Origin: Marchantia polymorpha subsp. ruderalis
Lineage: Eukaryota > Streptophyta > Marchantiopsida > Marchantiales > Marchantiaceae
Assembly (NCBI GenBank): GCA_037833965.1
Contig: AP031354.1
Span: 4,008,001-4,072,000 of the forward strand
DNA: 64,000 nt
Reading direction: 5' to 3'
The notes below the pieces were generated by a model that worked only from the letters and a program-made list of their open reading frames with translations, searched no databases and had not been told where the DNA came from. How positions within the stretch are numbered: the first letter of the stretch is position 1; the number at the start of each line of letters is the position of its first letter. Below, in pieces: positions 2,508 to 52,519 of this stretch. The position numbers and the translations under genes are program-made.

Positions 2508-2510
<3 letters not shown>

Positions 2511-12151: not shown

Positions 12152-12183
12152 GATAGCGTAGTGCTAGTTAGGACCTTTGAGGG

Positions 12184-15851: not shown

Positions 15852-15860
15852 TATTTTATA
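15852..15860 (-). promoter_or_regulatory. LTR TATA box, minus strand
   Basis: TATAAAATA on the minus strand, 36 bp after the U3ORF stop at 15897, with the CCAGGC/GCCTGG hairpin following. Confidence 0.75.
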
Positions 15861-15896
15861 CCTTCTAAGTCCTAACTAGCACTACACTGCACTATG

Positions 15897-18773: not shown

Positions 18774-20269
18774 GTTCCTGGAGTTCGCTCGCCCGCTCAT
18801 TCTACTTCCTCACCGCTCGAGCTCCTTTCTCTCTCGGCAAACTCTAATCGCCCTCAATTCCAAATCACGCGCACTCACTTCTCCCTCAATCACCAAGAAA
18901 TCCCCCGTGCGGCGACGTCGAGAATGTTTAGCAGCCAGCAGATGGACGCGCGCAGCGCGCACAAGAGATTGGAATCGCGAATTCAAGAATGGGACGCTCC
19001 CCGCCGCCCGGTCGAAGGTCATGGTCGGCTCTTGCTCGTGGAGGACGTCTCACTTGATGGCCGCGCCGGCTCTACGCTGGAACGGTCTCCGCTCTCACGC
19101 GCGGCTTCACGCTCCGCCGTCGCCGATTAAACTCTCACGCTCGAATTGGCGGATTTGAACTCCGCGAGCGTATTACCCCGCGGACATGGGAGCGCAGCGC
19201 CGAAGGCGAGTTTTCCGCCTTGCGCGGTACACTTGTTCGTACCGCCCCTCGGCCAATCCCCTTCTGCCTCGACGCGTGTGTCCGCATGTCGGACAAAAGT
19301 TCAACTCCTGCCTGTGCGCAGGCAGACTCCTCGGCGGATTCTCCGCCGGCGCGGAACTTCATCCTCCTGTGCACAGGCGCTCGCCTGTGCGCAGGCGAAT
19401 TCCGTGCGCGGCGTCGCGCTGGCGCGGAAGGCGTTGACCGTGGTCAGCCGTCTCCGTCCAGTCTGTCCGTTCCTTGTCTCTTCGTCGGCGCTTCCGCCGC
19501 CGCACTCCGTCCGTCCAAGAGCGCATCCACCCGTCCCGTCCGCATGGTCCGTACGGATTTGATTACTCTGGCGGCTCCTTGCTCGTCCGCGGCGCCGCGC
19601 TGGCGCAGAAGGCGCCGTACACTTTCTACCTCACAAGGCGCATTTCTAGGGCCCAAGGCGGATTTTCCGCCGACGCCGAAGCGCCTGTGCACAGGCGAAC
19701 GCCTGTGCGTAGGCGGACTTCGCGCCTCCCCAAACCCTACTTCGCCTGTGCACAGGCGAACTTCCTTCGTCCGCGCATAGGACAAAACTTGATTCCCCCT
19801 TCCGCGTAGGCGGAATTCCCGCCGGTGGCGAACTCCTTCCGCCGAAGGCGAACGTCTACGAATCTTCCAATAGTGATAACTCCCTAAGTCCTCATCCGTT
19901 CCAAGCGTTCTTGGACTCGTTGGAATCAGTGCGTCGAGCTCTTTCCAACGAGACCCTAACTCGGTCAAGGCGCCCGAGGGTTGACCTAATTATGAAGGAT
20001 TTCCCTACCGCCGCGGACGCAACCTCCGAAGGCGGGTTTTGCGCCTTGCGTCGCAGGGATCCTAACTGCAGAGCTCGCAGGGAGGGTGGTGCCCATCCTT
20101 ACTGCTGCACCCCAAATCCTAGATTCTACAAGATCCCTCGAGAATTCCCGCGATCTTCCGGATTCACTCTGTTTTGATGTACCGAAGGCTATTTACAATG
20201 CTGCCAGGGTACAGTTTTTTTCCAAAAATGTTTTAATTTCCTCAATATTACCAAAAGTGGGGTACCACA

Positions 20270-22796: not shown

Positions 22797-25403
22797 TGTG
22801 GTAACACACTTTTTGTTTTTTTTGCAGAATTTAAACAATTTTAGAAAACTAGTACCGAAGCAGTGTTTGTAGTTAGAAAAGAGTACGTTAAATAGAGTGG
22901 ATTGATGAGATCGTCACGGGGTCACGAAGAATCGCGTAGTCGGATGTACCAACGCCAATGTCTTCGGCGCCTTCGGCAAAAGCTCCTTTTCTAAGGTGTC
23001 TCTACTCACGCGCTTCCAGCGTATAAGGAAGCTACGCTTCCGGCGCAGACACCTCAGGACGAGGTTTTGCTAAAGACGTCAGAAGAAGGGCCCGGACCTC
23101 TGAAGGCGTCCGACCATGAGTGCGCCTTCGGCGATGCGCCGCTAGCGCGGAAAGGGAAACCTTCATAACGAGCGGAATACATAGTAGATCCAGTTGGTTG
23201 AAGTTGCATTATAAAGAGCTCGGGACGCTCGTTCTAACGAGCCCAAGAGCGTTGGAGATGGATCAGGGACGGAGAAGTTATGAGCGTCGGAAAACTCGTA
23301 GCCGGACATGCGCCGTTCGCGCTAGGGTTCACAGCCGGAAAGGACTCCCGTACGCCCTCGGCGATGCGCCTTCGGCGGAATCGCGCGCTCATGGGAGGAA
23401 ACCAACTCAGAGTCGGAAGCGCTTTTGGCGGCTGCTCATGGAAGGAAAGCGCCGGTCGGATGTACGCCTCCGACGTGGCGCTGATGGCCGGATGCGCTGG
23501 CATGATTTGCGCCGTCAGTAATGGACGAGGCATAAAGGACAAAATAAGCGGTACGAATACGCGCCGGCGTAATTCGCGCCGACTGGATGTGCGCCTCCAG
23601 CAAGGCGCCGATGGATAAGGAACACGCCAGCGGCGACACGCCTCCGGTGATGGACGGGTTAGGGAAAGACAACATAGCCGACGTATACCCTACGGCGGAC
23701 TCGAGTCCGGAAGGCGGCGGCGGCGGGAGAATTCAACATTCACGCATGCGAATGCGCGCAGTGTGGAGACGTGAGTTCGCGCATGCAAAGGGCAAACCGT
23801 TAGGCCGTATAGCCGGCTGCGTACGTTGTAACCAGTAAGAACGTTGGACGTTCTTGAATTCGGAGAAGAAAAGACTGCGCTCCAGTCTCATTCTCTCATT
23901 CTTGATTTTGCGATTTCCAGCTTCCAAGATCACGCGCAAGGGCGGAGAGACCTGCAGTGAGAGGAGAGAGTGCGGAGACGAGTTGCGTAAGGATCTTGAC
24001 AGACCTTGGAGAGAATTGCGAGTAGCGAACTTGAGCGTGAGCGGAGAGAGAGTGAGCAGTCAGTGCTTGAGCGGCCGACGCGCAGTGGCGATTGTGAGAG
24101 AGCGAGCGAAAGGGAGAACGTTTGTGTGTGCAGGAAACGCAATGTCGAAGGTTCCCCAGCTGCGAGTGTCTCCCCTCAGGGTGCCGCAGATCGGTCTACG
24201 CGCATTTCAAGATGTGCTGCTGGGGCTGAAGCTCGATTTCCTCCTGTGGGGGTGGAACTGGACATGTCCGGAGATGGTGCGCGAGTATCTGCAGGAGAGA
24301 CACAAGCCCTCACGCGGATTCCGTCCACATCCAGAAAGATGGGACATTTGTAACTGGGCGCAGGTGTTGGGCAGGTGTGCCGGCGAGGAAGGGGATCTCC
24401 TCTTCGAGGCCGATAGCGTGAAGGTGTCCCAGGAGGAAGAAATCTCCTACAATGAGCTCTTCAAAGTTGCCAGGCATCCCAAGAACGGTTTCCGGACACG
24501 GGATTACAAAGATCGATTGCGGAGAAATGTCGCGACTGCATTGCTGCAGATATTGCAGCCGACCAAGACCGCTTACATGCATGGTTGGCAGGTAGAATTT
24601 GTGGAGCTAGTGTTGTCAGGAGCTCCAGTGCAATGGGCACGGCTCCTGTGGAAGGTGACGCGCCAGCATGCGCAAGAAGAGAGAGGAGGAACCCTCAATC
24701 ATCTTTCGCCTTACCTGATTGTGTTTTATCGGGCGATGGGATGTTTGACAAATTCAGAGCGGACACGGTTTCTGCTGCTGACACAGAGCTATCCAGGTAG
24801 ATACTCACGGGAGGCCGAAGTAGACACGGATCCGGACAAGGAACCTGCCAGTCCGCCTCCGGCTCCGGCCCCAGCAAGAGCAGCAGAAGAACGTCGAAGT
24901 GAGCGCATTCCGCGAAAGCGGAAGTGGGATGAGAGACCTGAGGACAGGCAGCCGGAAGTGCCAGCTGCGCCGACTCGTGGTCGGCCCACCCACGAGCCTC
25001 ACAGTCGACCAAAACAGAGGGCACACAAAATGCCAACTAGTACTGAGGAGACCGGGCGTACTCCGCTCCGGCGGAATCCCACGCAGGAGGAGATAATCGC
25101 GCAGATTCTAGGGAAGTCGACAAATACCTCTGCGCAGAAGGCACCAATGCCTTCGGAAGGAGATGGACGGACTGACAGTCGGCCGACTACAAGTCGGGCG
25201 ACTGAAGGTCGACAAGCGGAAGGAAGGCCAACTGAACGGCGCGTTGAACCGGACAGCAGGCCGGAAGCAGAAGAGAGTTTGGCTGACGAGCCAACAATCC
25301 TCAGAAGGTCGTCTTCGGCGGAAGGCACTTCTGGGAAAACGCCACCAGCAAGCAGGCCAAGTGGAGTGAAGACGCGTAGGGTGTATCCGACTCCCAGTCG
25401 GAC
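22797..25403 (+). repeat. Family B 3' LTR, truncated by element X
   Basis: Starts TGTGGTAACACAC right after the polypurine tract. U3 22797-24141 holds no gene; it has the conserved AAAGAGCTCG...CGAGCCCAAG island (~23210-23285) and GC-rich palindromes. The U3ORF (from 24142) is cut at 25403, where a family A LTR starts. The rest of U3, R and U5 is not in this window. Confidence 0.88.
24142..25403 (+). pseudogene. Family B U3ORF, N-terminal 420 codons (interrupted)
   Basis: The ATG at 24142 (context AACGCAATG) aligns with the conserved Met of the family A protein. The N-terminal ~245 residues are clearly homologous: PLRVPQIGLRAFQ, FLLWGWNW, MVREYLQ, WAQVLGRCAG, FRTRDYKDRLRR, GGTLNHLSPYL. A basic motif (IPRKRKW) and SRPKQRA follow, then a charged, poorly conserved linker. 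The frame is open to the family A insertion at 25403 and then reads 7 foreign codons to a stop. The region upstream of the Met (23854-24141) is also open but is not similar to family A. Confidence 0.85.
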
Positions 25404-30101: not shown

Positions 30102-30410
30102 TGTGGTACCCCACTTTTGGCAATTTTGAGGAAATTAAAACATTTTTGGAAAACTGTACCCTGGCAGCATTGTAAATAGCCTTCGGTACATCAAAACAGA
30201 GTGAATCCGGAAGATCGCGGGGATTCTCGAGGGATCTTGTAGAATCTGGGATTTGGGGTGCAGTAGTAAGGTCAGGCACCACCCTCCCTGCGAGCTCCGC
30301 AGTTAGGATCTCTACGGCGCAAGGCGCAAAACCCGCCTTCGGAGGTTGCGTCCGCGGCTGTAGGGAAACCCTCGTAATTAGGTAACCCTCGGGCGCCTTG
30401 ACCAAGTTAG

Positions 30411-30480
30411 GATCCCGTTGGAAAGAGCTCGACGCGCTGATTCCAACGAGCCCAAGAACGCTTGGAACGGACGAGGACTT
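30411..30480 (+). other. Conserved U3 island with inverted repeats
   Basis: CGTTGGAA...TTCCAACG (17-bp spacer), followed by CCAAG-AACG-CTTGG. Family B has the same island (~23210-23285, 360-437, ~9488-9571), with the stem changed to TTAGAA...TTCTAA at 23210 and 9490. The rest of U3 upstream of the ORF is not alignable by eye between the families. Confidence 0.6.
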
Positions 30481-31597
30481 AGGGAGTTATCGCTACTGGA
30501 AGAAACGGAGGCGGTCGCCTGCGGCGGAAGGAGTTCGCCACCGGCGCGAATTCCGCCTGCGCGGAAGGGGGATTCAAGTTTTGTCCTATGCGCGGACGAA
30601 GGCGTTCGCCTGTGCACAGGCGAAGTAGGGTTAGGGAAGGCGCGAAGTCCGCCTACGCACAGGCGTTCGCCTGTGCACAGGCACTTCGGCGTCGGCGGGA
30701 GATCCGCCTTGGGCCCTAGAAATGCGCCTTGTGAGGTAGAAAGTGTACGGCGCCTTCCGCGCCAGCGCAGCGCAGCGTACGTCGGAAGACCGCCAGAGTA
30801 ATCCAATCGGTACGGACCATGCGGACGGCACGGGTGGATGCGCTCTTGGACGGACGGAGTTGCGGCGGCGGAAGCGCCGACGGAGAGACAAGGAACGGAC
30901 AGACTGGACGGAGACGGCTGACCACGGTCAACGCCTTCCGCGCCAGCGCGGCGCCGCGGACGGAATTCGCCTGCGCACAGGCGAACGCCTGTGCACAGGA
31001 GGATGTTCAAGTTCCGCGCCGGCGGAGAATCCGCCGAGGCCCCTGCCTGCGCACAGGCAGGAGTTGAATTTTCGTCCGACATGCGGACACACGCGTCAAG
31101 GCAGAAGGGGATTGGCCGAGGGGCGGTACGAACAAGTGTACCGCGCAAGGCGGAAAACTCGCCTTCGGCGCTACGCCCCCATGTCCGGAGGGTGACACGC
31201 TCGCGGAGTTCAAATCCGCCAATTCGAGCGTGAGAGTTTAATCGACGACGGCGGAGCGTGAAGCCGCGCGTGAGAGCAAAGACCGTTCCAGCGTACAGCC
31301 GGCGCGGCCATCAAGTGAGACGTTCTTCACGACCAAGAGACGACCATGACCTTCGACCGGGCGGCGGAGAGCATCCCATTCTTGAATTCGCGATTCCAAT
31401 CTCTTGTGCGCGCTGCGCGCATCCATCTGCTGGCTGCGGAACATTCTCGTCGTCGTCGCTCAGGAGATTTCTTGTTGATTGAGGGAGAAGTGAGTGCGCG
31501 TGATTTGGAATTGAGAGCGATTAGAGTTTGCCGAGAGAGAAAGAAACGCGGACAGTGCGGAAGTAGAATGAGCGGGCGAGCGAACCCCAGGAACGCA

Positions 31598-34483
31598 ATG
31601 ACGAGACCGAGCAGATTGCGGATGGTGCCACTTCGCCTGCCGCAGAACGGGCTGCGCGCTTTCGAAGAGCGCTTAATAGCAAGAAAGCTCGATTTCTTGC
31701 TATGGGGATGGAATTACATCTGCGCGAATATGGTGCGCGAGTGGCTAGAGCCACAGGGACCACCCTCGCGCGGATTGCGTCCGCATGTTGACCGGTGGAC
31801 AGTCCAAGATTGGGCGCAGGCGTTGGGAAGATGTGCTGGCATGCCAGGGCATCTCCTTTTCGACAGCGAGAGCATCAAGGTGACCAAGCAAGAAGAAGCG
31901 CAATTTGTGGAGCTGTTCAAGACCGGGAGGTCTACCAAGAATGGGTACAGGACCCGTGATTACAAAGATCGATTTCGCCGGACTTTGTCCGCGGCGCTGA
32001 TGCAATTACTGCAGCCGCACCGCGCCTGCTACATCACATTGTGGCAGGTCTCTTTTGTGGAGTGCGTCATCGAGGGAACTCCAATTCACTGGGCGAGCAT
32101 CCTGCACAGAGTGATGCGACAGCACGCGTTTGAGGAGAAAGGGGGAACGCTTAACCATCTTTCTCCTTTCCTCATCAATTTTTATCGACAGCGGAATTGT
32201 TTGACAGCGGCGGAGCTTGAACATTTTCCGCCATTGTCCATCGACCATCCCGGGAAGTATGTGCGGGAGAACGAGGTCGACACTGATGCGGAGGAGTCAC
32301 CGACTTCTACCCCATCAAGACGGAGAGACGAAGGGAGACACACCCCTGCAGCGCGAGTGCCGCGGAAGCGGCGATGGAGGGAAGAGGCCGAAGAGGAGCA
32401 GCATCAAGAACTCTCTGTTCCCATTCGACCGCGGCCGCTGTGCGAGCCATACAGCCGGCCGAAGCAGAAGGCACGCAGACTGGTGTTGCCAGCTGACAGT
32501 GCAGACACGGCGACGATTGCGACGGAGATAGGAAGTGCGTCGCCAGAGAGACGAGAGGAAGCGCGGACGACCGCAGGAGCGACGGGCCACGCTGCAACCT
32601 CGTCGGGAGAGAGGCCGCCTACGGGCCAAGGGCCTCCGGAGTTACCACGTGCGATGCGGACAGATGTTCCGTTTGCGCACAGGCGAACCTCCGCGGACGG
32701 ACGAGCCTCCGCGGATCGGCGAACACAAGTGGACGTGGATCTACGCTTACGCGTGGGAAGGAGCAGTCCGCCTGTGCACAGGCGCTCGCCTGTGCACAGG
32801 TCGCCTGTGCACAGAACACCTCCACACGTGCCGCCTGTGCACAGGCAAGAATCACCCCCGTTCCAACGTAGGAAGGGGAAGGAGCCGGCGGAAGAACCGC
32901 CTACGAGACACCGGCCCTCGGGGCCAGACCCTCCGGCGCACCACGCGCCGCAATTCGCGCCTTCGGCGCCAGGGCCTTCGAGCCGAGGGGATACGAGCAG
33001 AGAGCGTGCGGAGGCCGCACCATCGGCGGGAAGTACGCCGATAGATGCGCCTTCGGCGGTAGGGCCTATAGGCCAAGGAGCATCGGGCGTGCGGCCCCCG
33101 GCCATGTCGCCTTCGGCGATAGATGTCCGCGGCGCTACGCCTGCGGCGGACAAGACGCCGGCACATGCGCCTGCGCACGGGCCGGGCACAGCCCCCACGG
33201 ACCGATCAAGGGAGCAGCAGACGGAGGAGCGGAGTGACTGTCCGCGGGACGACATCTCGATGCGCGATGCGCAATCCAACCCCGCGCAGCCACCCTCCGC
33301 TCGATCGCCTTCGGCGACGGACGACGGCGACAGAGAGAATGCGGTGGGCAATCAACCAGCGAGCGACGGGGATGCCGCTCGGATACATTCGCCTTCCGCC
33401 TTAGACATTTTGGCGACGAGCAGCGAGGCTGCAGCCGTGCCTTCGCAGGCAGCACACGTCGAGGACGTGCAGCCCCACTCGGGGCAGTCGCCGACGCAAT
33501 CAATGGCGACTGAAATTCTCCACTCGGATGATGAGGACGGAGGCTCCACGGAAGAAATGTCAGGAGCAGAAGACACCGAGGAGGAGGAGGAGGAAATTGT
33601 TGGAGCGCCGGCGGCGGCGCTCTCTGAGCAGGTGATTCCGTTGCTGCGGTACTTGGATCGCAAGGTCGATAAATACGCCGACCCACTCCAGCCGGGATCT
33701 TACATCGAGTTAGTGCGCAGGCGGACTCGCACTAAAGTCCACACCAGCAAGCTATTAGCTAGAGTGGACCAGGAGTTGAGGGACTTGAAGGAGAAGCATG
33801 AGTGCTTGTGGGGACAGTACAAGCTTAATCAGAAATTCTACAAGCACTCCGAGAAGATGAAGGATGAGAAACTGGGCGAGCTCACCAAGGAGCAGGTGAA
33901 GGTCAAGGAAGCACTCGATTTTGAGCAGGCCCAGAATCGGATTTTGTCAGAGGAGCTCGTGCGACAGACGCGGTTGTTGGAACAATGTCAGCTCGCACGG
34001 CAGGCGGATGAAGAATTAATCCGCAGTTTACAGTCAGAGTGTGGCGAATTGAGGGCGCAACGTGCTGAAGCCGAATCGCAATTAGTGACCATTGAAGAGG
34101 ATCGCAGGAAGGAGGCGGATCGCACGAAGGTGGAGACGGCGAAGCGAGTCGCCCACTGTCTCAAGGGCTACGCCCACTGGGAAGTGAAGGCGCAGGAGAA
34201 ACTCACACTGCGGGAGTTTGAATTGCGCGCAGCCGGGTTGTTGTCAGGCGACAGTAGGAGTCGGCGGAAGGTAGCGAAGAAGCTCGAGGCCTTTCTGTCG
34301 AAGGCACAGGATACCATGTCCGCCCTCGAGGGGGAGGTGTCCGCGGCGTTGCAGCGGTTGGGACTGCGTAGTCGAGCGGAAGAGTGGCAGGGTAGGGAGC
34401 TAGTGCGCGGCAGTCGGCCGCGCAGGAGACGTAGTACAGGTTCCGCGGAGTGTAGTGTAGCGTGGTTCCGTGCAGGCGTGTAG
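31598..34483 (+). CDS. U3ORF protein: LTR-encoded coiled-coil protein, copy 1
   Basis: 961 residues, role unknown. The start at 31598 is chosen because protein similarity to family B begins at this Met, both have AACGCAATG, and another copy (14891-20269) has a stop just upstream; the frame is open 84 codons further, to ATG 31346. Residues 1-241 form a conserved domain (LLWGWNYIC, YRTRDYKDRFRR, GGTLNHLSPFLINFY). A basic motif PRKRRW (~255-260) could be a nuclear localisation signal. A Pro/Arg-rich linker has PVHR repeats encoded by GCCTGTGCACAGGC palindromes (~388-418). An acidic tract lies at ~650-668, then EQVIPLLRYLDRK (~677-689) and a long coiled coil, ending in RRRRSTGSAECS. I see no membrane segment or enzyme motif. 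The N-terminal fold may be related to ORFs of Tat/Athila elements, but that is a guess. The ORF lies wholly in U3, ending 36 bp before the TATA box. Confidence 0.85.
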   Translation: MTRPSRLRMVPLRLPQNGLRAFEERLIARKLDFLLWGWNYICANMVREWLEPQGPPSRGLRPHVDRWTVQDWAQALGRCAGMPGHLLFDSESIKVTKQEEAQFVELFKTGRSTKNGYRTRDYKDRFRRTLSAALMQLLQPHRACYITLWQVSFVECVIEGTPIHWASILHRVMRQHAFEEKGGTLNHLSPFLINFYRQRNCLTAAELEHFPPLSIDHPGKYVRENEVDTDAEESPTSTPSRRRDEGRHTPAARVPRKRRWREEAEEEQHQELSVPIRPRPLCEPYSRPKQKARRLVLPADSADTATIATEIGSASPERREEARTTAGATGHAATSSGERPPTGQGPPELPRAMRTDVPFAHRRTSADGRASADRRTQVDVDLRLRVGRSSPPVHRRSPVHRSPVHRTPPHVPPVHRQESPPFQRRKGKEPAEEPPTRHRPSGPDPPAHHAPQFAPSAPGPSSRGDTSRERAEAAPSAGSTPIDAPSAVGPIGQGASGVRPPAMSPSAIDVRGATPAADKTPAHAPAHGPGTAPTDRSREQQTEERSDCPRDDISMRDAQSNPAQPPSARSPSATDDGDRENAVGNQPASDGDAARIHSPSALDILATSSEAAAVPSQAAHVEDVQPHSGQSPTQSMATEILHSDDEDGGSTEEMSGAEDTEEEEEEIVGAPAAALSEQVIPLLRYLDRKVDKYADPLQPGSYIELVRRRTRTKVHTSKLLARVDQELRDLKEKHECLWGQYKLNQKFYKHSEKMKDEKLGELTKEQVKVKEALDFEQAQNRILSEELVRQTRLLEQCQLARQADEELIRSLQSECGELRAQRAEAESQLVTIEEDRRKEADRTKVETAKRVAHCLKGYAHWEVKAQEKLTLREFELRAAGLLSGDSRSRRKVAKKLEAFLSKAQDTMSALEGEVSAALQRLGLRSRAEEWQGRELVRGSRPRRRRSTGSAECSVAWFRAGV
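32770..32846 (+). repeat. Palindrome cluster GCCTGTGCACAGGC inside U3ORF
   Basis: Exact 14-bp palindromes at 32770-32783 and 32833-32846, with near copies at ~32788 and ~32802. In this frame each unit encodes PVHR. The same palindrome occurs in non-coding U3 (30608, 30669). Confidence 0.85.
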
Positions 34484-34519
34484 CGTAGTGCAGTGTAGTG
34501 TTAGGTAGGACTTAGAAGG

Positions 34520-34528
34520 TATAAAATA
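34520..34528 (+). promoter_or_regulatory. LTR1 TATA box (element promoter)
   Basis: TATAAAATA, 36 bp after the U3ORF stop. The expected RNA start is about 34550, placing the U3ORF entirely in U3 and leaving ~940 bp of R/U5. Confidence 0.8.
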
Positions 34529-34531
34529 GTT

Positions 34532-34548
34532 CCAGGCGTTTTGCCTGG
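34532..34548 (+). other. Inverted repeat next to the LTR start site
   Basis: CCAGGC-GTTTT-GCCTGG. Family B has CAAGGC-GTTTT-GCCTTG at the same place, a paired change that keeps the stem. Confidence 0.65.
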
Positions 34549-35514
34549 GGTTCTTTCCCATCAGAAGTGCAGATCAGGAACCCATTTCCTTTGCGTGTTT
34601 GTGTCCTTGAGTTCTGTCACCACGCACGAGGAGTTACAACTTAGCGTTCCGCATTTTGTAGCTGAAGGCCTTCGGCCGAATGTTCAGAGCTAGTACATTG
34701 GTTAGAGACTTGAGTAGTTCGGATCTGCACCTGCGGGTGACTGCCGATGCTCAGAGCCAGTGACTAGTTAGATACTTGAACAGTTTCGCCCCTACACCTT
34801 CGAGTGTTTCTTTCTGATTGTACTCCTTGGGATTTTTCCCCTGAATGCCAAAGTGAAGTTTTGCTACTTCGTGTAAGCCTTGGTTGTAAATTCAGGTTAC
34901 GCTGCAGCAGGTGCCTGGAGGGTAACCCCTGTAGTATTTCTGGGAATGACAAGTGCCTGAGAATTCAAACTCTTCAATAGACTGTTGTTGTGTTACTGGA
35001 ACGTTTCACAGTGAGTCCTTCAGTGTGGACCTGTGTTCTCTGCGCGTTTTGTGAGTTGAGAGTGTTGTTCACCGCGTATGAGTGACTTCGATCCGAAGTA
35101 GGCAGTCCAAACCGGGTTTCCTACACTAGCAGCAAGCTAGTGGAAGTGTTGTAAAAGCCGGAGTTGGAAGTCACTGCCCGCAGCTTTGCCGAGTGTACTC
35201 TTGAGAGACTTTCCCCCTGAAATCTTGAAGTAGAGGTCCTAACGGATCTCTGGGTTGTGTTTCTGTAGTTTCAGGTGTGTGTGTGTGTGTGTGTTACGCT
35301 GCACTGTGCGACCTCCGAGTGCGCTCCGAGTGGACACTTGCAGTATTTCTGGGAGTGACAGTTGCCTGAGAATTCAAACTCCTCAATAGTCTGTTAAAAC
35401 GTGACACTTTATACCCTGTGTGTTCCTCTGTCCCTGTGGGTTCGACCTTTCTACCACTATATTGCAGTTTTAGCCTTTAGTGGGTTATTACATAAGAAGC
35501 CGACAACTTCTTTT

Positions 35515-35532
35515 TGGCGCCGCTGCCGGGGA
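35515..35532 (+). other. Primer-binding site (tRNA-Asp type), unit 1
   Basis: TGGCGCCGCTGCCGGGGA, complementary to a tRNA ending UCCCCGGCAGCGGCGCCA. This resembles the plant tRNA-Asp 3' end with one difference (from memory). A 22-bp spacer separates it from the LTR end at 35492; in most LTR elements the PBS is within a few bases. The spacer holds AAGAAG...CTTCTT. Confidence 0.85.
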
Positions 35533-35579: not shown

Positions 35580-38432
35580 ATGTCGACTGGGGCTGGCGGG
35601 AGCAACCTAAGTGCTAGAGCTGTCCGCAAGTTCCGACGAGATTCAGAGAAGGCCGTGGAAGAGACACGGCGTCAAACCAAGAAAACACCAAAAAGAGTAC
35701 CTAAGCCTAGTTCGGCCGACATCCTTGGGGAACCTACCCCCGGCGACTCGGAACCAAACTTGGTGCTTACAGTTCTACTAGATATTCCTTGCACGGACCC
35801 GCCTAGTGAAGTAGAACCGACCGCCCGAGGACCGTCGACAGACACACTGATGGCGGACGGACAAGCCAATGTGCGGCTACCTCAGCCGATTACTAAACAT
35901 TCCTACCCGAAGTACAAAGGGAGTGGGGATGACGACGATGCAGATTCATACATCAAGTTATTCGAGTCGGTGTCTATTGCCAATCGCGAGATCGCAGACG
36001 ACGACCGACTAAGGATCTTTCCAAGCCTTCTGCGGAAGAAAGCGAGGAGTTGGTATAATCACGAGAGCATCGATCCGACTGGGTTGACAACATGGGCCCA
36101 GCTGAAGGAGAAGTTCCTTCGTCGCTTTCGCGAGCTCGGCTACGACAGCCGGGTTTTGACGAAGTTACGTAATTTGCAGCGAGAGAAGAAGGAGAGTCTG
36201 CGTGACTACACTGAGAGATTTATGGACCTCCTCGACAGAATACCGAAAACAGGACCAGGGTCCCCTTTCTCGGTACAACAAGCTGTGGATTGGTACGTGA
36301 CCGGTTTAACTCGGGAGATGGAGACTTTTTGCCGACGCAGCAAGTGCGACACTATTGAGGATGTGATTGCATCGGCAGAAGCCTTCGAAACTTCCACTCT
36401 CAACCGAAGAGGGAGAGAGAGACGGGAGTCGAAGGAGCGCAAACAGAAAGGAGGGCGAAGACGGCGTAGAGGTACAACTCCGTCATCGGAGGAATCGTCT
36501 TCGGACGAGAACCGTTCTTCATCCGAAGAAGAGGAAACCTCATCGTCGGAGGAGGAGAAGAAGAGGAAGAAGCATGGGTCAGCGAAGAAAAAGGGCATCC
36601 GACGAGTGACTACGGACAGAGCGCCGGGAGATATAGCTTCGAAGATGGAGACCCTTGTGAAGGACTTCGCCGATCTCAAGGTTCAAGTGGTAGGCGGGCA
36701 TGATCGCCGAAAATCACCCGGGAGAGTGCGAGCGAACTTATGGTGTACTACGTGCGGGGCGGTGGGACATGCAAACACCGAGTGCCTTACCACCCGGCCG
36801 TCATATCCAGTCAACGCAGTAGAGTGGGCGCAACCGTACTATGGAGAGCACCCTCCGTACTATGGAGAGCACCCTCAGTACTATGGAGAGGCTAGCGAAG
36901 AGACAGCCTACGCCGTCCAGTCGGTGCCTACCCCTCCTGCGGTTTCAGCAATGCAAGTTCCACGATATATTCCGGTGGATCGGGCCACTACGGTACCGGT
37001 GAGGCGGAGAGCACCTCCAGGGACGTTTGACCCACCGCCACCGCGAGCTTGTTATAATTGCGGGGAAGTTGGGCACTTCTCACCGCAGTGTCCCCATCCA
37101 AAAAGGCGAAACGATTATGCTCCGACATGTAGCAATTGCAAGAAGGTCGGGCACACTGCGCCAGAGTGTGATCAGCCACCAGTCCCTCGGCCAGTGGTAC
37201 GATTTGTGAACACTCCTGCCAAGGAGGACGTGCAAGTTAACCAGGTCGAAGTAGGTTCAGACGGGGATGGCGAAGACGAAGAATGGCCGGCTGAAGAGGT
37301 TATGTGCGCACGGGTCGAAACTCGTAGCTCCAAGAAATCCAAGGAGCAAGAGCGTGACACTCGCAAGCACGAACGGAGAACCGCCGACCGGACGGGAAAA
37401 GGAAAGGAGAAGACATCCAGCAAGTCCGACTCGCGACCTGCTCGGAAGTCTTTGACTACGCGGGAGGCACCAGCAGTGCGCCCCCAGGCAGCAGTCGAGG
37501 ACGAGCCAGTGCGCCTACTGAAACGGGACTATGCTCCGGATATCCGCAACGAGGTAGCCAACCTGTTGCAGGAAGCGATCCGCACTCAAAAGGATCCACC
37601 GCGGCCAGACCTGACATCCTCCCTTGGGGCGAAGTTGGCAGCCACCGTGGAACCTCGCAGAGCGTCGCCGACCCCGGCGCCCCAACGCGCCCACTATGAC
37701 TTGGTTGAAGATCTCGGGAGTCGAAAAGTGAACATTACGTTCAAGCAGCTCTTGGAGGACAATAAGACGTATCGGAGAATGTTGATGCTTTCGCTACGGC
37801 ATCCGCGGAAGCCGCGCGCATCCACATCCTCTCAAGTATATCAAGTGGAGAGCGAAGACCAAGGGCCACCCGAGATCGATGTGGAGATAGCCGGATGTTG
37901 TGTACGCAGAGTGCCAATCGACTCTGGATCAGGAGTCAACATAATGACGGAGGATACAGCGAGAGCCTTGGGGTTCAGTCAATACGAACCCTCGAAGCGT
38001 GTGTTGAGATTAGCGGATCAGACGCGGAGAATGCCTGCAGGTATGCTGCGCAATGTCAAGACAACCATCGGGGGTGCGGACTTTCGGTTGACGTATATCA
38101 TCCTTCAACCGATGATGAAGCAGGGCTATGACGTTCTGCTCGGGCGACCATGGCTATATGGTGCACAAGTCAGATGTGACTGGCGAAGACATCGCCTTAA
38201 GTTTCCTCATCCTTCGGAACCGACCAAAACCATTACAGTGCCCTGGAATAGGGTCAGGCACGAAGGAGAGACCCCATCGACAAGTGCAGGTTACACATCG
38301 GGCGAGGACAGTGAGTCGACCGCGCGATCGGATTCCAGTGGTACCGAATCCGATTACTTCGTGGGATTCGTTGCCTGCTGTTCGGTGGAAGAAGAAGAAG
38401 AGACGGAAGCTATTCAGCCGGAAGACGAATAG
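35580..38432 (+). CDS. gag-pro: Gag-protease polyprotein, unit 1
   Basis: 950 residues, forming the particle and nucleocapsid and the protease. The retrotransposon Gag (capsid) domain is at roughly 115-285 (KKARSWYNHES, LKEKFLRRF). It is followed by a Lys/Ser/Glu-rich linker and three CCHC zinc knuckles (C389-C402, C491-C504, C517-C530) that would bind RNA. The YYGEHP repeats lie between knuckles 1 and 2. The retropepsin-type protease has catalytic D781-S-G (DSGSGVNIMT) and DVLLGRPWLY. The start ATG at 35580 follows the PBS by 47 bp. An overlapping out-of-frame ATG at 35569 opens a 14-codon ORF, and several more ATGs lie in R/U5. The gene ends with TAG in a leaky context, followed in frame by pol. 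Confidence 0.93.
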   Translation: MSTGAGGSNLSARAVRKFRRDSEKAVEETRRQTKKTPKRVPKPSSADILGEPTPGDSEPNLVLTVLLDIPCTDPPSEVEPTARGPSTDTLMADGQANVRLPQPITKHSYPKYKGSGDDDDADSYIKLFESVSIANREIADDDRLRIFPSLLRKKARSWYNHESIDPTGLTTWAQLKEKFLRRFRELGYDSRVLTKLRNLQREKKESLRDYTERFMDLLDRIPKTGPGSPFSVQQAVDWYVTGLTREMETFCRRSKCDTIEDVIASAEAFETSTLNRRGRERRESKERKQKGGRRRRRGTTPSSEESSSDENRSSSEEEETSSSEEEKKRKKHGSAKKKGIRRVTTDRAPGDIASKMETLVKDFADLKVQVVGGHDRRKSPGRVRANLWCTTCGAVGHANTECLTTRPSYPVNAVEWAQPYYGEHPPYYGEHPQYYGEASEETAYAVQSVPTPPAVSAMQVPRYIPVDRATTVPVRRRAPPGTFDPPPPRACYNCGEVGHFSPQCPHPKRRNDYAPTCSNCKKVGHTAPECDQPPVPRPVVRFVNTPAKEDVQVNQVEVGSDGDGEDEEWPAEEVMCARVETRSSKKSKEQERDTRKHERRTADRTGKGKEKTSSKSDSRPARKSLTTREAPAVRPQAAVEDEPVRLLKRDYAPDIRNEVANLLQEAIRTQKDPPRPDLTSSLGAKLAATVEPRRASPTPAPQRAHYDLVEDLGSRKVNITFKQLLEDNKTYRRMLMLSLRHPRKPRASTSSQVYQVESEDQGPPEIDVEIAGCCVRRVPIDSGSGVNIMTEDTARALGFSQYEPSKRVLRLADQTRRMPAGMLRNVKTTIGGADFRLTYIILQPMMKQGYDVLLGRPWLYGAQVRCDWRRHRLKFPHPSEPTKTITVPWNRVRHEGETPSTSAGYTSGEDSESTARSDSSGTESDYFVGFVACCSVEEEEETEAIQPEDE

Positions 38433-41297: not shown

Positions 41298-41310
41298 GAG
41301 GAGGGGGGCA
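41298..41310 (+). other. Polypurine tract, unit 1
   Basis: GAGGAGGGGGGCA directly precedes the LTR2 start at 41311. Priming site for plus-strand DNA. Confidence 0.88.
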
Positions 41311-42806
41311 TGTGGTACCCCACTTTTGGCAATTTTGAGGAAATTAAAACATTTTTGGAAAACTGTACCCTGGCAGCATTGTAAATAGCCTTTGGTACAT
41401 CAAAACAGAGTGAATCCGGAAGATCGCGGGGATTCTCGAGGGATCTTGTAGAATCTGGGATTTGGGGTGCAGTAGTAAGGTCAGGCACCACCCTCCCTGC
41501 GAGCTCCGCAGTTAGGATCTCTACGGCGCAAGGCGCAAAACCCGCCTTCGGAGGTTGCGTCCGCGGCTGTAGGGAAACCCTCGTAATTAGGTAACCCTCG
41601 GGCGCCTTGACCAAGTTAGGATCCCGTTGAAAAGAGCTCGACGCGCTGATTCCAACGAGCCCAAGAACGCTTGGAACGGACGAGGACTTAGGGAGTTATC
41701 GCTACTGGAAGAAACGGAGGCGGTCGCCTGCGGCGGAAGGAGTTCGCCACCGGCGCGAATTCCGCCTGCGCGGAAGGGGGATTCAAGTTTTGTCCTATGC
41801 GCGGACGAAGGCGTTCGCCTGTGCACAGGCGAAGTAGGGTTAGGGAAGGCGCGAAGTCCGCCTACGCACAGGCGTTCGCCTGTGCACAGGCACTTCGGCA
41901 TCGGCGGGAGATCCGCCTTGGGCCCTAGAAATGCGCCTTGTGAGGTAGAAAGTGTACGGCGCCTTCCGCGCCAGCGCAGCGCAGCGTACGTCGGAAGACC
42001 GCCAGAGTAATCCAATCGGTACGTCCCATGCGGACGGCACGGGTGGATGCGCTCTTGGACGGACGGAGTTGCGGCGGCGGAAGCGCCGACGGAGAGACAA
42101 GGAACGGACAGACTGGACGGAGACGGCTGACCGCGGTCAACGCCTTCCGCGCCAGCGCGGCGCCGCGGACGGAATTCGCCTGCGCACAGGCGAACGCCTG
42201 TGCACAGGAGGATGTTCAAGTTCCGCGCCGGCGGAGAATCCGCCGAGGCCCCTGCCTGCGCACAGGCAGGAGTTGAATTTTCGTCCGACATGCGGACACA
42301 CGCGTCAAGGCAGAAGGGGATTGGCCGAGGGGCGGTACGAACAAGTGTACCGCGCAAGGCGGAAAACTCGCCTTCGGCGCTACGCCCCCATGTCCGGAGG
42401 GTGACACGCTCGCGGAGTTCAAATCCGCCAATTCGAGCGTGAGAGTTTAATCGACGACGGCGGAGCGTGAAGCCGCGCGTGAGAGCAAAGACCGTTCCAG
42501 CGTACAGCCGGCGCGGCCATCAAGTGAGACGTTCTTCACGACCAAGAGACGACCATGACCTTCGACCGGGCGGCGGAGAGCATCCCATTCTTGAATTCGC
42601 GATTCCAATCTCTTGTGCGCGCTGCGCGCATCCATCTGCTGGCTGCGGAACATTCTCGTCGTCGTCGCTCAGGAGATTTCTTGTTGATTGAGGGAGAAGT
42701 GAGTGCGCGTGATTTGGAATTGAGAGCGATTAGAGTTTGCCGAGAGAGAAAGAAACGCGGACAGTGCGGAAGTAGAATGAGCGGGCGAGCGAACCCCAGG
42801 AACGCA

Positions 42807-45692
42807 ATGACGAGACCGAGCAGATTGCGGATGGTGCCACTTCGCCTGCCGCAGAACGGGCTGCGCGCTTTTGAAGAGCGCTTAATAGCAAGAAAGCTCG
42901 ATTTCTTGCTATGGGGATGGAATTACATCTGCGCGAATATGGTGCGCGAGTGGCTAGAGCCACAGGGACCACCCTCGCGCGGATTGCGTCCGCATGTTGA
43001 CCGGTGGACAGTCCAAGATTGGGCGCAGGCGTTGGGAAGATGTGCTGGCATGCCAGGGCATCTCCTTTTCGACAGCGAGAGCATCAAGGTGACCAAGCAA
43101 GAAGAAGCGCAATTTGTGGAGCTGTTCAAGACCGGGAGGTCTACCAAGAATGGGTACAGGACCCGTGATTACAAAGATCGATTTCGCCGGACTTTGTCCG
43201 CGGCGCTGATGCAATTACTGCAGCCGCACCGCGCCTGCTACATCACATTGTGGCAGGTCTCTTTTGTGGAGTGCGTCATCGAGGGAACTCCAATTCACTG
43301 GGCGAGCATCCTGCACAGAGTGATGCGACAGCACGCGTTTGAGGAGAAAGGGGGAACGCTTAACCATCTTTCTCCTTTCCTCATCAATTTTTATCGACAG
43401 CGGAATTGTTTGACAGCGGCGGAGCTTGAACATTTTCCGCCATTGTCCATCGACCATCCCGGGAAGTATGTGCGGGAGAACGAGGTCGACACTGATGCGG
43501 AGGAGTCACCGACTTCTACCCCATCAAGACGGAGAGACGAAGGGAGACACACCCCTGCAGCGCGAGTGCCGCGGAAGCGGCGATGGAGGGAAGAGGCCGA
43601 AGAGGAGCAGCATCAAGAACTCTCTGTTCCCATTCGACCGCGGCCGCTGTGCGAGCCATACAGCCGGCCGAAGCAGAAGGCACGCAGACTGGTGTTGCCA
43701 GCTGACAGTGCAGACACGGCGACGATTGCGACGGAGATAGGAAGTGCGTCGCCAGAGAGACGAGAGGAAGCGCGGACGACCGCAGGAGCGACGGGCCACG
43801 CTGCAACCTCGTCGGGAGAGAGGCCGCCTACGGGCCAAGGGCCTCCGGAGTTACCACGTGCGATGCGGACAGATGTTCCGTTTGCGCACAGGCGAACCTC
43901 CGCGGACGGACGAGCCTCCGCGGATCGGCGAACACAAGTGGACGTGGATCTACGCTTACGCGTGGGAAGGAGCAGTCCGCCTGTGCACAGGCGCTCGCCT
44001 GTGCACAGGTCGCCTGTGCACAGAACACCTCCACACGTGCCGCCTGTGCACAGGCAAGAATCACCCCCGTTCCAACGTAGGAAGGGGAAGGAGCCGGCGG
44101 AAGAACCGCCTACGAGACACCGGCCCTCGGGGCCAGACCCTCCGGGGCACCACGCGCCGCAATTCGCGCCTTCGGCGCCAGGGCCTTCGAGCCGAGGGGA
44201 TACGAGCAGAGAGCGTGCGGAGGCCGCACCATCGGCGGGAAGTACGCCGATAGATGCGCCTTCGGCGGTAGGGCCTATAGGCCAAGGAGCATCGGGCGTG
44301 CGGCCCCCGGCCATGTCGCCTTCGGCGATAGATGTCCGCGGCGCTACGCCTGCGGCGGACAAGACGCCGGCACATGCGCCTGCGCACGGGCCGGGCACAG
44401 CCCCCACGGACCGATCAAGGGAGCAGCAGACGGAGGAGCGGAGTGACTGTCCGCGGGACGACATCTCGATGCGCGATGCGCAATCCAACCCCGCGCAGCC
44501 ACCCTCCGCTCGATCGCCTTCGGCGACGGACGACGGCGACAGAGAGAATGCGGTGGGCAATCAACCAGCGAGCGACGGGGATGCCGCTCGGATACATTCG
44601 CCTTCCGCCTTAGACATTTTGGCGACGAGCAGCGAGGCTGCAGCCGTGCCTTCGCAGGCAGCACACGTCGAGGACGTGCAGCCCCACTCGGGGCAGTCGC
44701 CGACGCAATCAATGGCGACTGAAATTCTCCACTCGGATGATGAGGACGGAGGCTCCACGGAAGAAATGTCAGGAGCAGAAGACACCGAGGAGGAGGAGGA
44801 GGAAATTGTTGGAGCGCCGGCGGCGGCGCTCTCTGAGCAGGTGATTCCGTTGCTGCGGTACTTGGATCGCAAGGTCGATAAATACGCCGACCCACTCCAG
44901 CCGGGATCTTACATCGAGTTAGTGCGCAGGCGGACTCGCACTAAAGTCCACACCAGCAAGCTATTAGCTAGAGTGGACCAGGAGTTGAGGGACTTGAAGG
45001 AGAAGCATGAGTGCTTGTGGGGACAGTACAAGCTTAATCAGAAATTCTACAAGCACTCCGAGAAGATGAAGGATGAGAAACTGGGCGAGCTCACCAAGGA
45101 GCAGGTGAAGGTCAAGGAAGCACTCGATTTTGAGCAGGCCCAGAATCGGATTTTGTCAGAGGAGCTCGTGCGACAGACGCGGTTGTTGGAACAATGTCAG
45201 CTCGCACGGCAGGCGGATGAAGAATTAATCCGCAGTTTACAGTCAGAGTGTGGCGAATTGAGGGCGCAACGTGCTGAAGCCGAATCGCAATTAGTGACCA
45301 TTGAAGAGGATCGCAGGAAGGAGGCGGATCGCACGAAGGTGGAGACGGCGAAGCGAGTCGCCCACTGTCTCAAGGGCTACGCCCACTGGGAAGTGAAGGC
45401 GCAGGAGAAACTCACACTGCGGGAGTTTGAATTGCGCGCAGCCGGGTTGTTGTCAGGCGACAGTAGGAGTCGGCGGAAGGTAGCGAAGAAGCTCGAGGCC
45501 TTTCTGTCGAAGGCACAGGATACCATGTCCGCCCTCAAGGGGGAGGTGTCCGCGGCGTTGCAGCGGTTGGGACTGCGTAGTCGAGCGGAAGAGTGGCAGG
45601 GTAGGGAGCTAGTGCGCGGCAGTCGGCCGCGCTGGAGACGTAGTACAGGTTCCGCGGAGTGTAGTGTAGCGTGGTTCCGTGCAGGCGTGTAG
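42807..45692 (+). CDS. U3ORF protein, copy 2
   Basis: 961 codons from the conserved Met (open from 42555). Nearly identical to copy 1. Differences seen: PPGHHAP for PPAHHAP in the linker, SALKGEVS for SALEGEVS and PRWRRST for PRRRRST near the C terminus. The last two are shared with copy 3. All landmarks of copy 1 are present and no break is seen. Confidence 0.85.
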   Translation: MTRPSRLRMVPLRLPQNGLRAFEERLIARKLDFLLWGWNYICANMVREWLEPQGPPSRGLRPHVDRWTVQDWAQALGRCAGMPGHLLFDSESIKVTKQEEAQFVELFKTGRSTKNGYRTRDYKDRFRRTLSAALMQLLQPHRACYITLWQVSFVECVIEGTPIHWASILHRVMRQHAFEEKGGTLNHLSPFLINFYRQRNCLTAAELEHFPPLSIDHPGKYVRENEVDTDAEESPTSTPSRRRDEGRHTPAARVPRKRRWREEAEEEQHQELSVPIRPRPLCEPYSRPKQKARRLVLPADSADTATIATEIGSASPERREEARTTAGATGHAATSSGERPPTGQGPPELPRAMRTDVPFAHRRTSADGRASADRRTQVDVDLRLRVGRSSPPVHRRSPVHRSPVHRTPPHVPPVHRQESPPFQRRKGKEPAEEPPTRHRPSGPDPPGHHAPQFAPSAPGPSSRGDTSRERAEAAPSAGSTPIDAPSAVGPIGQGASGVRPPAMSPSAIDVRGATPAADKTPAHAPAHGPGTAPTDRSREQQTEERSDCPRDDISMRDAQSNPAQPPSARSPSATDDGDRENAVGNQPASDGDAARIHSPSALDILATSSEAAAVPSQAAHVEDVQPHSGQSPTQSMATEILHSDDEDGGSTEEMSGAEDTEEEEEEIVGAPAAALSEQVIPLLRYLDRKVDKYADPLQPGSYIELVRRRTRTKVHTSKLLARVDQELRDLKEKHECLWGQYKLNQKFYKHSEKMKDEKLGELTKEQVKVKEALDFEQAQNRILSEELVRQTRLLEQCQLARQADEELIRSLQSECGELRAQRAEAESQLVTIEEDRRKEADRTKVETAKRVAHCLKGYAHWEVKAQEKLTLREFELRAAGLLSGDSRSRRKVAKKLEAFLSKAQDTMSALKGEVSAALQRLGLRSRAEEWQGRELVRGSRPRWRRSTGSAECSVAWFRAGV

Positions 45693-45728
45693 CGTAGTGC
45701 AGTGTAGTGTTAGGTAGGACTTAGAAGG

Positions 45729-45737
45729 TATAAAATA
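45729..45737 (+). promoter_or_regulatory. LTR2 TATA box
   Basis: TATAAAATA, 36 bp after the U3ORF stop, followed by the CCAGGC/GCCTGG inverted repeat. Would drive unit 2. Confidence 0.78.
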
Positions 45738-46723
45738 GTTCCAGGCGTTTTGCCTGGGGTTCTTTCCCATCAGAAGTGCAGATCAGGAACCCATTTCCTT
45801 TGCGTGTTTGTGTCCTTGAGTTCTGTCACCACGCACGAGGAGTTACAACTTAGCGTTCCGCATTTTGTAGCTGAAGGCCTTCGGCCGAATGTTCAGAGCT
45901 AGTACATTGGTTAGAGACTTGAGTAGTTCGGATCTGCACCTGCGGGTGACTGCCGATGCTCAGAGCCAGTGACTAGTTAGATACTTGAACAGTTTCGCCC
46001 CTACACCTTCGAGTGTTTCTTTCTGATTGTACTCCTTGGGATTTTTCCCCTGAATGCCAAAGTGAAGTTTTGCTACTTCGTGTAAGCCTTGGTTGTAAAT
46101 TCAGGTTACGCTGCAGCAGGTGCCTGGAGGGTAACCCCTGTAGTATTTCTGGGAATGACAAGTGCCTGAGAATTCAAACTCTTCAATAGACTGTTGTTGT
46201 GTTACTGGAACGTTTCACAGTGAGTCCTTCAGTGTGGACCTGTGTTCTCTGCGCGTTTTGTGAGTTGAGAGTGTTGTTCACCGCGTATGAGTGACTTCGA
46301 TCCGAAGTAGGCAGTCCAAACCGGGTTTCCTACACTAGCAGCAAGCTAGTGGAAGTGTTGTAAAAGCCGGAGTTGGAAGTCACTGCCCGCAGCTTTGCCG
46401 AGTGTACTCTTGAGAGACTTTCCCCCTGAAATCTTGAAGTAGAGGTCCTAACGGATCTCTGGGTTGTGTTTCTGTAGTTTCAGGTGTGTGTGTGTGTGTG
46501 TGTTACGCTGCACTGTGCGACCTCCGAGTGCGCTCCGAGTGGACACTTGCAGTATTTCTGGGAGTGACAGTTGCCTGAGAATTCAAACTCCTCAATAGTC
46601 TGTTAAAACGTGACACTTTATACCCTGTGTGTTCCTCTGTCCCTGTGGGTTCGACCTTTCTACCACTATATTGCAGTTTTAGCCTTTAGTGGGTTATTAC
46701 ATAAGAAGCCGACAACTTCTTTT

Positions 46724-46741
46724 TGGCGCCGCTGCCGGGGA
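46724..46741 (+). other. Primer-binding site (tRNA-Asp type), unit 2
   Basis: Same 18-mer and 22-bp spacer from the LTR end (46701) as in unit 1. Confidence 0.85.
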
Positions 46742-46788
46742 CAGTTGCGTCAACACCGGGGTTTTTTACGAGCAGCCATGCTCGGTGA

Positions 46789-49641: not shown

Positions 49642-49647
49642 CAATTA
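49639..49647 (+). promoter_or_regulatory. Leaky stop UAG-CAA-UUA, unit 2
   Basis: Same readthrough context as in unit 1, followed in frame by pol. Confidence 0.78.
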
Positions 49648-52482: not shown

Positions 52483-52506
52483 GTGTTCGCGTAGGCGCTC
52501 ACAATT

Positions 52507-52519
52507 GAGGAGGGGGGCA
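52507..52519 (+). other. Polypurine tract, unit 2
   Basis: GAGGAGGGGGGCA directly before LTR3 at 52520. Confidence 0.87.

What the first reader, a model, noticed from the sequence alone, without database searches (positions are those of the whole stretch)
30102..35492. A giant LTR encodes its own large protein: a 961-codon ORF wholly inside U3
Seen: three complete 5391-bp LTRs each carry an open 961-codon frame (31598, 42807, 54016), ending 36 bp upstream of the TATA box. The LTR ends are fixed by the solo LTR with CGCGC duplications at 3507-7570. Known: extra ORFs in Tat/Athila/Ogre elements lie in the internal region, upstream of gag or downstream of pol. A large gene wholly in U3 is rare; the well-known case is sag of mouse mammary tumour virus. 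Inference: this is a retrotransposon accessory gene duplicated in every LTR, so every solo LTR keeps a copy.
Basis: partly seen in the sequence, partly recalled or inferred. Interest (0 to 1): 0.9.

Follow-up and report, generated by a model that had tools for sequence, protein, structure and literature searches.

The report
Large gene inside liverwort retrotransposon LTRs
In the liverwort Marchantia polymorpha, a young family of jumping genes carries a large protein gene, kept intact by selection, entirely inside its terminal repeats, so that an insertion installs two copies and a leftover single repeat can still carry one.

Summary
The 5,391-bp segment is a true LTR of a Ty3/gypsy element: TG...CA ends, tRNA-Asp primer site, polypurine tract, gag-PR and RT-RH-INT. 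Beyond the window's tandem array, nine insertions elsewhere in the genome are bounded by two such LTRs and nine different perfect 5-bp duplications. The genome is Marchantia polymorpha, almost surely Tak-2: contig C1 has exactly the implied length of chrU. The 961-codon ORF lies wholly in U3 and is a real gene: window copies give dN/dS 0.20-0.37 (short pieces 0.00-0.58), and the N-terminal domain of the one full-length diverged copy has dN 0.009 against dS 0.219. A second LTR family, B, with a 42-58% identical protein, carries it too. Four solo LTRs with perfect duplications keep the ORF intact, but both solo LTRs in the window have it broken. 117 relatives were found; all named ones are Marchantia. 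No Pfam, PDB or viral-structure match passed threshold. Best reading: an accessory gene placed like MMTV sag, probably encoding a nuclear protein acting for the element. Expression and function are untested. A selected gene of this size wholly in U3 looks undescribed in plants within the papers I could search.

The parts
30102..35492 (+). LTR copy 1 (5,391 bp, TG...CA)
31598..34483 (+). U3 ORF, 961 codons plus stop (frame open upstream to an ATG at 31346, 1,045 codons)
34520..34525 (+). TATAAA, 36 bp after the ORF stop; presumed promoter of the genomic RNA, placing the ORF in U3
   Evidence: promoter role inferred
35515..35532 (+). primer binding site, complementary over 18 nt to the 3' end of Marchantia tRNA-Asp(GTC) with CCA added
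35580..38432 (+). gag (Retrotrans_gag, CCHC knuckles) plus aspartic protease, 950 aa
38628..41273 (+). pol: RT, RNase H, integrase, 881 aa; no chromodomain match
41298..41310 (+). polypurine tract GAGGAGGGGGGCA immediately before the next LTR
41311..46701 (+). LTR copy 2 with U3 ORF 42807-45692
46702..52519 (+). internal region copy 2 (6 differences from copy 1; pol has one stop, codon 282)
52520..57910 (+). LTR copy 3 with U3 ORF 54016-56901
57911..60553 (+). internal region copy 3, 5' part missing (starts in pol)
60554..64000 (+). LTR copy 4, cut by the window end, ORF open from 62050 to the window end
3507..7570 (-). solo LTR (3512-7565) with CGCGC duplications; LTR positions 2029-3346 deleted, ORF broken
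14891..20269 (-). full-length LTR without internal region, 93.8% identical, no matching duplication; ORF with in-frame indels only and one stop (codon 486)
22797..25403 (+). 3' LTR (cut short) of related element B; homologous U3 ORF from 24142
9132..13105 (+). probable 5' LTR region of element B, rearranged, with three pieces of the homologous ORF (10460-10915, 10904-11008, 11219-12136)

Best explanation
This is a recently active Ty3/gypsy LTR retrotransposon family of Marchantia polymorpha whose U3 contains a complete accessory protein gene. SHOWN: the segment is an LTR, the ORF is in both LTRs of insertions with target duplications and in solo LTRs, and the protein sequence is under purifying selection, strongest in an N-terminal domain of about 245 residues. 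INFERRED: the genomic RNA starts after the TATA box of the 5' LTR, so it carries the ORF once, as a 3' gene after pol. Reverse transcription then copies U3 to both ends, as for sag of MMTV. The protein is probably made from the 3' (or a solo) LTR, either through a spliced subgenomic RNA or from a promoter in the ~1.5 kb of U3 upstream of the ORF. In the 5' LTR the ORF lies upstream of the TATA box and would need that second promoter. The protein (conserved N-terminal domain, basic NLS-like clusters, long proline/alanine/serine-rich segment, low-proline C-terminal part that looks coiled-coil-like) most likely works in the nucleus for the element, as a transcriptional or anti-silencing regulator or an import/integration cofactor.
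For: LTR anatomy and gag-pol. PBS matching tRNA-Asp over 18 nt. Nine insertions with matching 5-bp duplications; eight LTR pairs differ by 0-9 substitutions (two of them also by 15 gap columns), the ninth pair differs in length and was not counted. All 44 scored genome hits of 13,386 first-look candidates were full length and stop-free. The 30 of these held as loci (three are the window's own) are, by their ends, 12 3' LTRs, 9 5' LTRs, 3 middle LTRs, 4 solo LTRs with duplication, 1 solo-like without, 1 undetermined. dN/dS over the longer stretches: 0.20 (602 codons), 0.27 (955), 0.29 (645), 0.33 (352), 0.37 (501); gag/pol yardstick 0.05-0.11 where usable. N-domain dN 0.009, dS 0.219; codon-position counts 6/0/31 there against 23/22/31 in the 5' U3; both ORF indels are multiples of 3 against 2 of 9 outside. 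M. polymorpha gene models join the ORF's N-domain to integrase (P0113) and its C-part to gag (P0118), as expected of an ORF on both sides of gag-pol.
Against: No RNA, ribosome or protein evidence was available. Family A has only a poor splice acceptor before the ORF, and the leader donor is only a crude consensus match. No TATA in the 5' U3 of A, though B has one at 23210. Fold prediction was poor (mean pLDDT 39.8 and 53.3), with no significant structure match. Nuclear function rests on composition and on analogy with GENE23 of Grande (PMC7264820). Searches used hits ranked by protein score, which biases against amino-acid changes and stops. B's 5' LTR is rearranged, so an ORF at both ends of B is shown only in pieces.
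Confidence: 0.72

Rival explanations
1. The stretch is kept mainly because its DNA or RNA is part of the LTR (promoter, packaging) and acts in cis; coding capacity is a by-product.
For: LTRs carry regulatory DNA; the part after the ORF (mostly R-U5) of the diverged copy is even better conserved than the ORF (0.020 against 0.05-0.08 substitutions per site).
Against: Changes are concentrated at third codon positions (6/0/31 in the N-domain) and both ORF indels are multiples of 3; family B keeps the protein with dN/dS 0.25-0.35 at dS above 1 in its two longer usable pieces.
Confidence: 0.05
2. The ORF was recently captured from a host gene (transduction) and is not an old gene of the element.
For: Gene capture by plant LTR elements is known (PMC7264820, parts 1 and 2 read). 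One relative, P0119, is a gene model joining a protein-kinase part to a piece of the ORF, more likely a fused annotation than an ancestor.
Against: All named relatives are Marchantia proteins, nearly all called hypothetical, that look like copies of the same kind; two LTR families share the ORF at 42-58% protein identity in the window; no clear non-element homologue was seen in about 5.8 billion proteins within the reach of those searches.
Confidence: 0.1
3. The 5.4-kb segment is not an LTR but a tandem repeat or segmental duplication containing a gene.
For: The window itself shows a tandem array of 11,209-bp units.
Against: Nine insertions with distinct matching 5-bp duplications, and four solo LTRs with duplications; TG...CA ends, PBS, PPT.
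Confidence: 0.01
4. The protein works as an env-like or movement-related product, like the sense 3' ORFs of Athila and SIRE elements, that has come to lie in U3.
For: In the genomic RNA it sits after pol in sense orientation, the position of env-like ORFs (PMC7264820).
Against: Athila ORF-1, Transposase_28 and plant mobile domain were not among the Pfam matches of any of 22 relatives. Membrane segments were not tested.
Confidence: 0.12

Closest known systems
MMTV superantigen gene (sag) in the 3' LTR (PMC3026287, passages seen)
   Same: A protein gene in an unusually long LTR, at the 3' end of the genomic RNA and so duplicated at both ends; many endogenous copies keep the gene intact.
   Different: sag is viral, sits in a ~1.3-kb LTR and is made from spliced RNA; here the LTR is 5.4 kb, the ORF 961 codons, the host a liverwort, and splicing is unknown. 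No sequence comparison with Sag was made.
Additional ORFs of plant LTR retrotransposons: Athila, SIRE, Grande gene23, Retand, Ogre (PMC7264820, parts 1-2 of 3; PMC6317226, passages)
   Same: An extra, conserved, element-borne ORF of unknown function; GENE23 is nuclear.
   Different: Those described lie in the internal region, mostly between pol and the 3' LTR; this one is wholly inside U3. No shared Pfam domain was found.
Lentiviral nef (recalled)
   Same: 3' accessory gene overlapping U3.
   Different: nef lies only partly in U3; this ORF lies wholly in it and is far larger. Recalled, not tested.

Membership tests
Ty3/gypsy LTR retrotransposon | Two LTRs with TG...CA and a short target duplication | tested here: met
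   9 insertions with matching 5-bp duplications. Of the 10 pairs fetched for, 5 matched, 3 (chrU copies of one another) did not, 2 had no 3' end found
Ty3/gypsy LTR retrotransposon | gag-PR then RT-RNase H-integrase order, PBS and PPT | tested here: met
Chromovirus branch | Chromodomain at the end of integrase | tested here: not met
   no chromodomain among Pfam hits of pol up to E = 1
Tat clade (Ogre, Retand) | Second, archaeal-type RNase H (aRH; PMC6317226, passages) | tested here: not met
   only the two RT-linked RNase H models matched pol, at one place
Athila / OTA superclade | RT-RH-INT phylogeny | not tested
   no labelled reference set at hand; a tRNA-Asp PBS fits non-chromoviruses as described in PMC6317226 but is not diagnostic
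Athila ORF-1, Transposase_28 or plant mobile domain accessory proteins | Match to PF03078, PF04195 or PF10536 | tested here: not met
   not among the 12 families listed for 22 members scanned at E up to 10; HMMER's filters drop most weak matches, so remote kinship is not excluded
sag-like U3 accessory gene (works like) | Complete ORF inside U3, duplicated in both LTRs | tested here: met
   U3 boundary inferred from the TATA box
sag-like U3 accessory gene (works like) | Expressed from a spliced or U3-promoted RNA | not testable with these tools
   no transcript data; crude splice and TATA scan inconclusive
MMTV sag (member of) | Sequence homology to Sag | not tested
   no direct comparison; no significant viral structural match for the poorly modelled N-domain

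The most novel reading that the evidence does not exclude
A plant retrotransposon lineage has turned its LTR into a gene cassette: each LTR, including solo LTRs, is an independently expressed source of a nuclear regulator that acts in trans on the family (for example against host silencing). Hundreds of dispersed solo LTRs would then form a self-made reservoir of helper genes that survives LTR-LTR recombination, and loss of the internal region would not silence the family's regulator.
Probability: 0.3. Interest if true: 0.85.

Novelty: new variant of a known kind. Interest (0 to 1): 0.66.

Why it matters
Extra ORFs of plant retrotransposons have been described in the internal region (PMC7264820). 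A selected gene of 961 codons wholly in U3 changes the bookkeeping: an insertion makes two gene copies, and solo LTRs, usually seen as gene-free remnants, can stay coding. The family is young (two of five LTR pairs with 0 differences in 5.4 kb), abundant (2,910 LTR 5' ends at up to 2 mismatches) and lives in a genetically tractable model plant, so expression and function are directly testable. It also warns annotators: copies are listed as ordinary M. polymorpha genes (for example Mp_8g15400).

Tried and rejected
Pfam gave no match above its cut-off for the U3 protein (best for the full protein: phage Inj_translocase, E 0.03, 14.5 bits against a cut-off of 29.7; each of 12 families matched 1 of 22 members, best E 0.044). 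Rfam gave nothing for 30000-42000, the only part searched. PDB sequences gave one hit at E 0.56; PDB and viral folds gave none at E up to 0.001. The two AlphaFold jobs gave weak models (mean pLDDT 39.8 and 53.3), so fold matches were not interpreted. A hunch that the N-domain is related to Athila ORF-1 or Transposase_32 (recalled motifs) found no support. A crude splice/TATA scan gave no clear expression route. The antisense 283-aa ORFs inside the U3 ORF were dropped: that length is within the shuffle range (99th percentile 367). The estimate of solo LTRs by subtraction (2,910 LTR starts less 1,250 LTR/PBS and 781 PPT/LTR junctions, about 880) is rough: the patterns differ in length and tolerance, and truncated LTRs are counted.

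Full report
WHAT IS THERE. The window holds a tandem array of a Ty3/gypsy element: LTR 30102-35492, internal region 35493-41310, LTR 41311-46701, internal 46702-52519, LTR 52520-57910, a 5'-truncated internal region 57911-60553, and a fourth LTR running off the window. The three complete LTRs differ from each other at 10 to 19 of 5,391 positions, and the two complete internal regions at 6 positions. The internal region encodes gag with zinc knuckles and an aspartic protease in one ORF, and RT, RNase H and integrase in a second; no chromodomain model matched. The primer site lies 22 bp after the LTR. All 29 genome matches to a tRNA 3'-end pattern that allowed A or G at two positions read CAGCGGCG. 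One of them, fetched, is tRNA-Asp(GTC) by ARAGORN. With CCA added, 18 of 18 primer-site bases are complementary if the gene ends one base before ARAGORN's boundary, the end at which all 7 acceptor-stem pairs form; at ARAGORN's own boundary only 3 bases would pair. A polypurine tract ends at the LTR start.

WHICH ORGANISM. The genome behind the window is 241,466,482 bp in 9 contigs. Contig C1 is 5,591,195 bp, exactly the chrU length implied by Table 1 of the MarpolBase paper (248,042,680 minus 242,451,485; PMC13078153, passages seen). So the window is from Marchantia polymorpha, female Tak-2 or a near-identical assembly; the printed Tak-2 total, 241,484,302, differs by about 18 kb, which I cannot explain. 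Protein relatives agree: all named hits are M. polymorpha.

IS IT AN LTR? The array alone could not show this. I therefore fetched both LTRs of 10 pairs of LTR starts about 11.2 kb apart. Five (E4, E5, E7, E8, E9) have perfect 5-bp duplications and LTR differences of 0, 5, 8, 9 and 0 substitutions (E7 and E8 also 15 gap columns). Three (E1-E3) have none and are copies of one another on chrU by their flanks, with LTRs differing at 181-193 positions. In two (E6, E10) the 3' end was not found. Four more pairs among the 30 loci also match. In total nine insertions have nine different duplications; chance for one match is about 1 in 1,024. In the five fetched pairs the long ORF is present in both LTRs, with one 5' copy (E5) cut at 629 codons; in the other four pairs both ORFs are stop-free.

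SOLO LTRs. In the window, 3512-7565 has CGCGC on both sides but lacks LTR positions 2029-3346. The LTR at 14891-20269 is full length, has no matching duplication and one stop at codon 486. So neither window solo LTR keeps an intact frame. Elsewhere, four loci (L018, L021, L029, L030) are solo LTRs with perfect duplications and the complete ORF; L018 lacks about 76 bp of U3 upstream of the ORF. Pattern counts (2,910 LTR starts, 1,250 LTR/primer-site junctions, 781 polypurine/LTR junctions) suggest several hundred solo or truncated LTRs.

IS THE ORF A GENE? Its length exceeds the longest ORF in each of 300 dinucleotide shuffles. Codon evidence is stronger. Against the first copy, window copies give dN/dS 0.20, 0.25, 0.27, 0.27, 0.29, 0.33, 0.35 and 0.37 (one of the 0.27 values rests on 59 codons, with an interval reaching 1.08); other short or rearranged stretches give 0.00 (176 codons), 0.19 (60 codons) and 0.58 (98 codons, two stops); a piece at 16967-17608 with 27% identity and two stops, 0.66, lies antisense to the copy there and is probably a chance match; one family-B piece gave no usable dS; the two nearly identical tandem copies (0.96 and 1.60) have too few changes to tell. 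gag and pol, the yardstick, give 0.05-0.11 where usable, 0.14 in a copy with almost no changes; some family-B comparisons are saturated. In the copy at 14891-20269 the N-terminal 246 codons have dN 0.009 and dS 0.219, the middle 0.067 and 0.125, the C-terminal part 0.039 and 0.155. Codon-position counts are 6/0/31 in the N-domain against 23/22/31 in the 5' U3; both indels in the ORF are multiples of 3, against 2 of 9 elsewhere in the LTR. In 30 genome loci, single-base codon variants are 74 synonymous to 45 non-synonymous, and 21 to 2 in the N-domain; this sample was ranked by protein score and so is biased. All 44 scored hits, of 13,386 first-look candidates, were full length without stops (same bias).

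A SECOND FAMILY. An older element (B) spans roughly 9132-25403. Its 3' LTR (22797-25403, cut short) carries the homologous ORF from 24142; its probable 5' LTR is rearranged and holds three pieces of the ORF. The two LTR regions are 93% identical over 1,791 columns. LTR nucleotide identity to family A is about 68-75% in the stretches that align; protein identity is 42-58%. B is abundant in the genome (100 of 9,418 first-look candidates scored; some copies have no stop in the matched 420 codons and an open frame of 952 codons, others contain one to three stops). M. polymorpha protein Mp_8g15400 (P0077) is 87% identical to the B piece at 11219-12148.

THE PROTEIN. It has a conserved N-terminal domain of about 245 residues, basic clusters (for example RKRRW at residue 256), a middle 415 residues with 14% proline, 14% alanine and 11% serine, and a C-terminal 301 residues low in proline and rich in Leu, Glu, Lys and Arg, coiled-coil-like by eye only. 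117 relatives were found at E up to 0.1, 108 of them named, all Marchantia; only the best 7,996 candidates were scored, so absence from other plants is not proven. Pfam gave no consistent hit for 22 relatives, PDB sequences none below E 0.56. The better structure model had mean pLDDT 53 and no significant match.

HOW IT LIKELY WORKS. Position is shown; expression is inferred. With the TATA box at 34520 the genomic RNA would carry the ORF once, about 1.5 kb after the end of pol. Reverse transcription then copies U3 to both ends. This is the sag arrangement (PMC3026287, passages seen: the MMTV 3' LTR encodes Sag and is exceptionally long because of it; [quoted passage not shown] A crude scan found one weak donor in the leader of both families, a good acceptor and a TATAAA (23210) in family B's U3, but only a poor acceptor and no TATA in A's. 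So either route is possible. The faster evolution than gag-pol and the composition fit a regulatory accessory protein; nuclear action is my guess, by analogy with GENE23 of Grande (PMC7264820, parts 1 and 2 of 3 read).

WHAT IS KNOWN. A review places plant additional ORFs in the internal region (PMC7264820, parts 1-2); the REXdb survey (PMC6317226, passages) reports extra ORFs up- or downstream of the polyprotein, does not mention Marchantia in its main text, and searched LTRs up to 6,000 bp. Searches for LTR-encoded ORFs and for Marchantia LTR elements showed no plant case in the listings and passages I saw; most listed papers were not opened, and preprints and most subscription papers are not in the library. 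I therefore call it a new variant of a known kind: a retroelement accessory gene, with a U3 location known from retroviruses.

Noticed in passing
30102-64000; also G000:C2 31345292-31390028: The element forms head-to-tail arrays (LTR-int-LTR-int-LTR); on C2 five LTR starts are spaced by exactly 11,184 bp. Long LTRs may favour unequal recombination into arrays.
   Followed up: partly
G000:C1 (chrU) about 2.34-3.26 Mb: LTR/PBS junctions repeat in three sets with nearly the same spacing (2336135/2343101, 2742504/2749468, 3095686/3102654), suggesting a tandem segmental triplication (0.35-0.4 Mb units) on the female sex chromosome; E1-E3 share flanks too.
   Followed up: no
14891-20269 against 30102-35492: The part after the ORF (mostly R-U5) differs at 0.020 per site while U3 differs at 0.05-0.08; unexplained constraint or exchange.
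   Followed up: no
proteins P0113, P0118, P0119, P0077: M. polymorpha gene models fuse parts of this LTR ORF with integrase, gag or a kinase part, or list it as an ordinary gene (Mp_8g15400): probable transposon contamination of the annotation.
   Followed up: partly
49837-52482: The second tandem copy's pol has a single stop at codon 282 while the first copy is open.
   Followed up: no
31346-31597: The frame is open for 84 codons before the likely start, and family B is also open there without an ATG. Constraint is inconclusive (dN 0.061, dS 0.143; another copy's codons 1-77 give dN/dS 0.59). It might be part of a spliced exon.
   Followed up: partly
25404-30101: A mosaic of family-A LTR fragments (LTR positions 1-207, 1-1456, 4170-5391, 1599-3400) lies directly before the array, whose first LTR begins inside another copy's ORF.
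   Followed up: no
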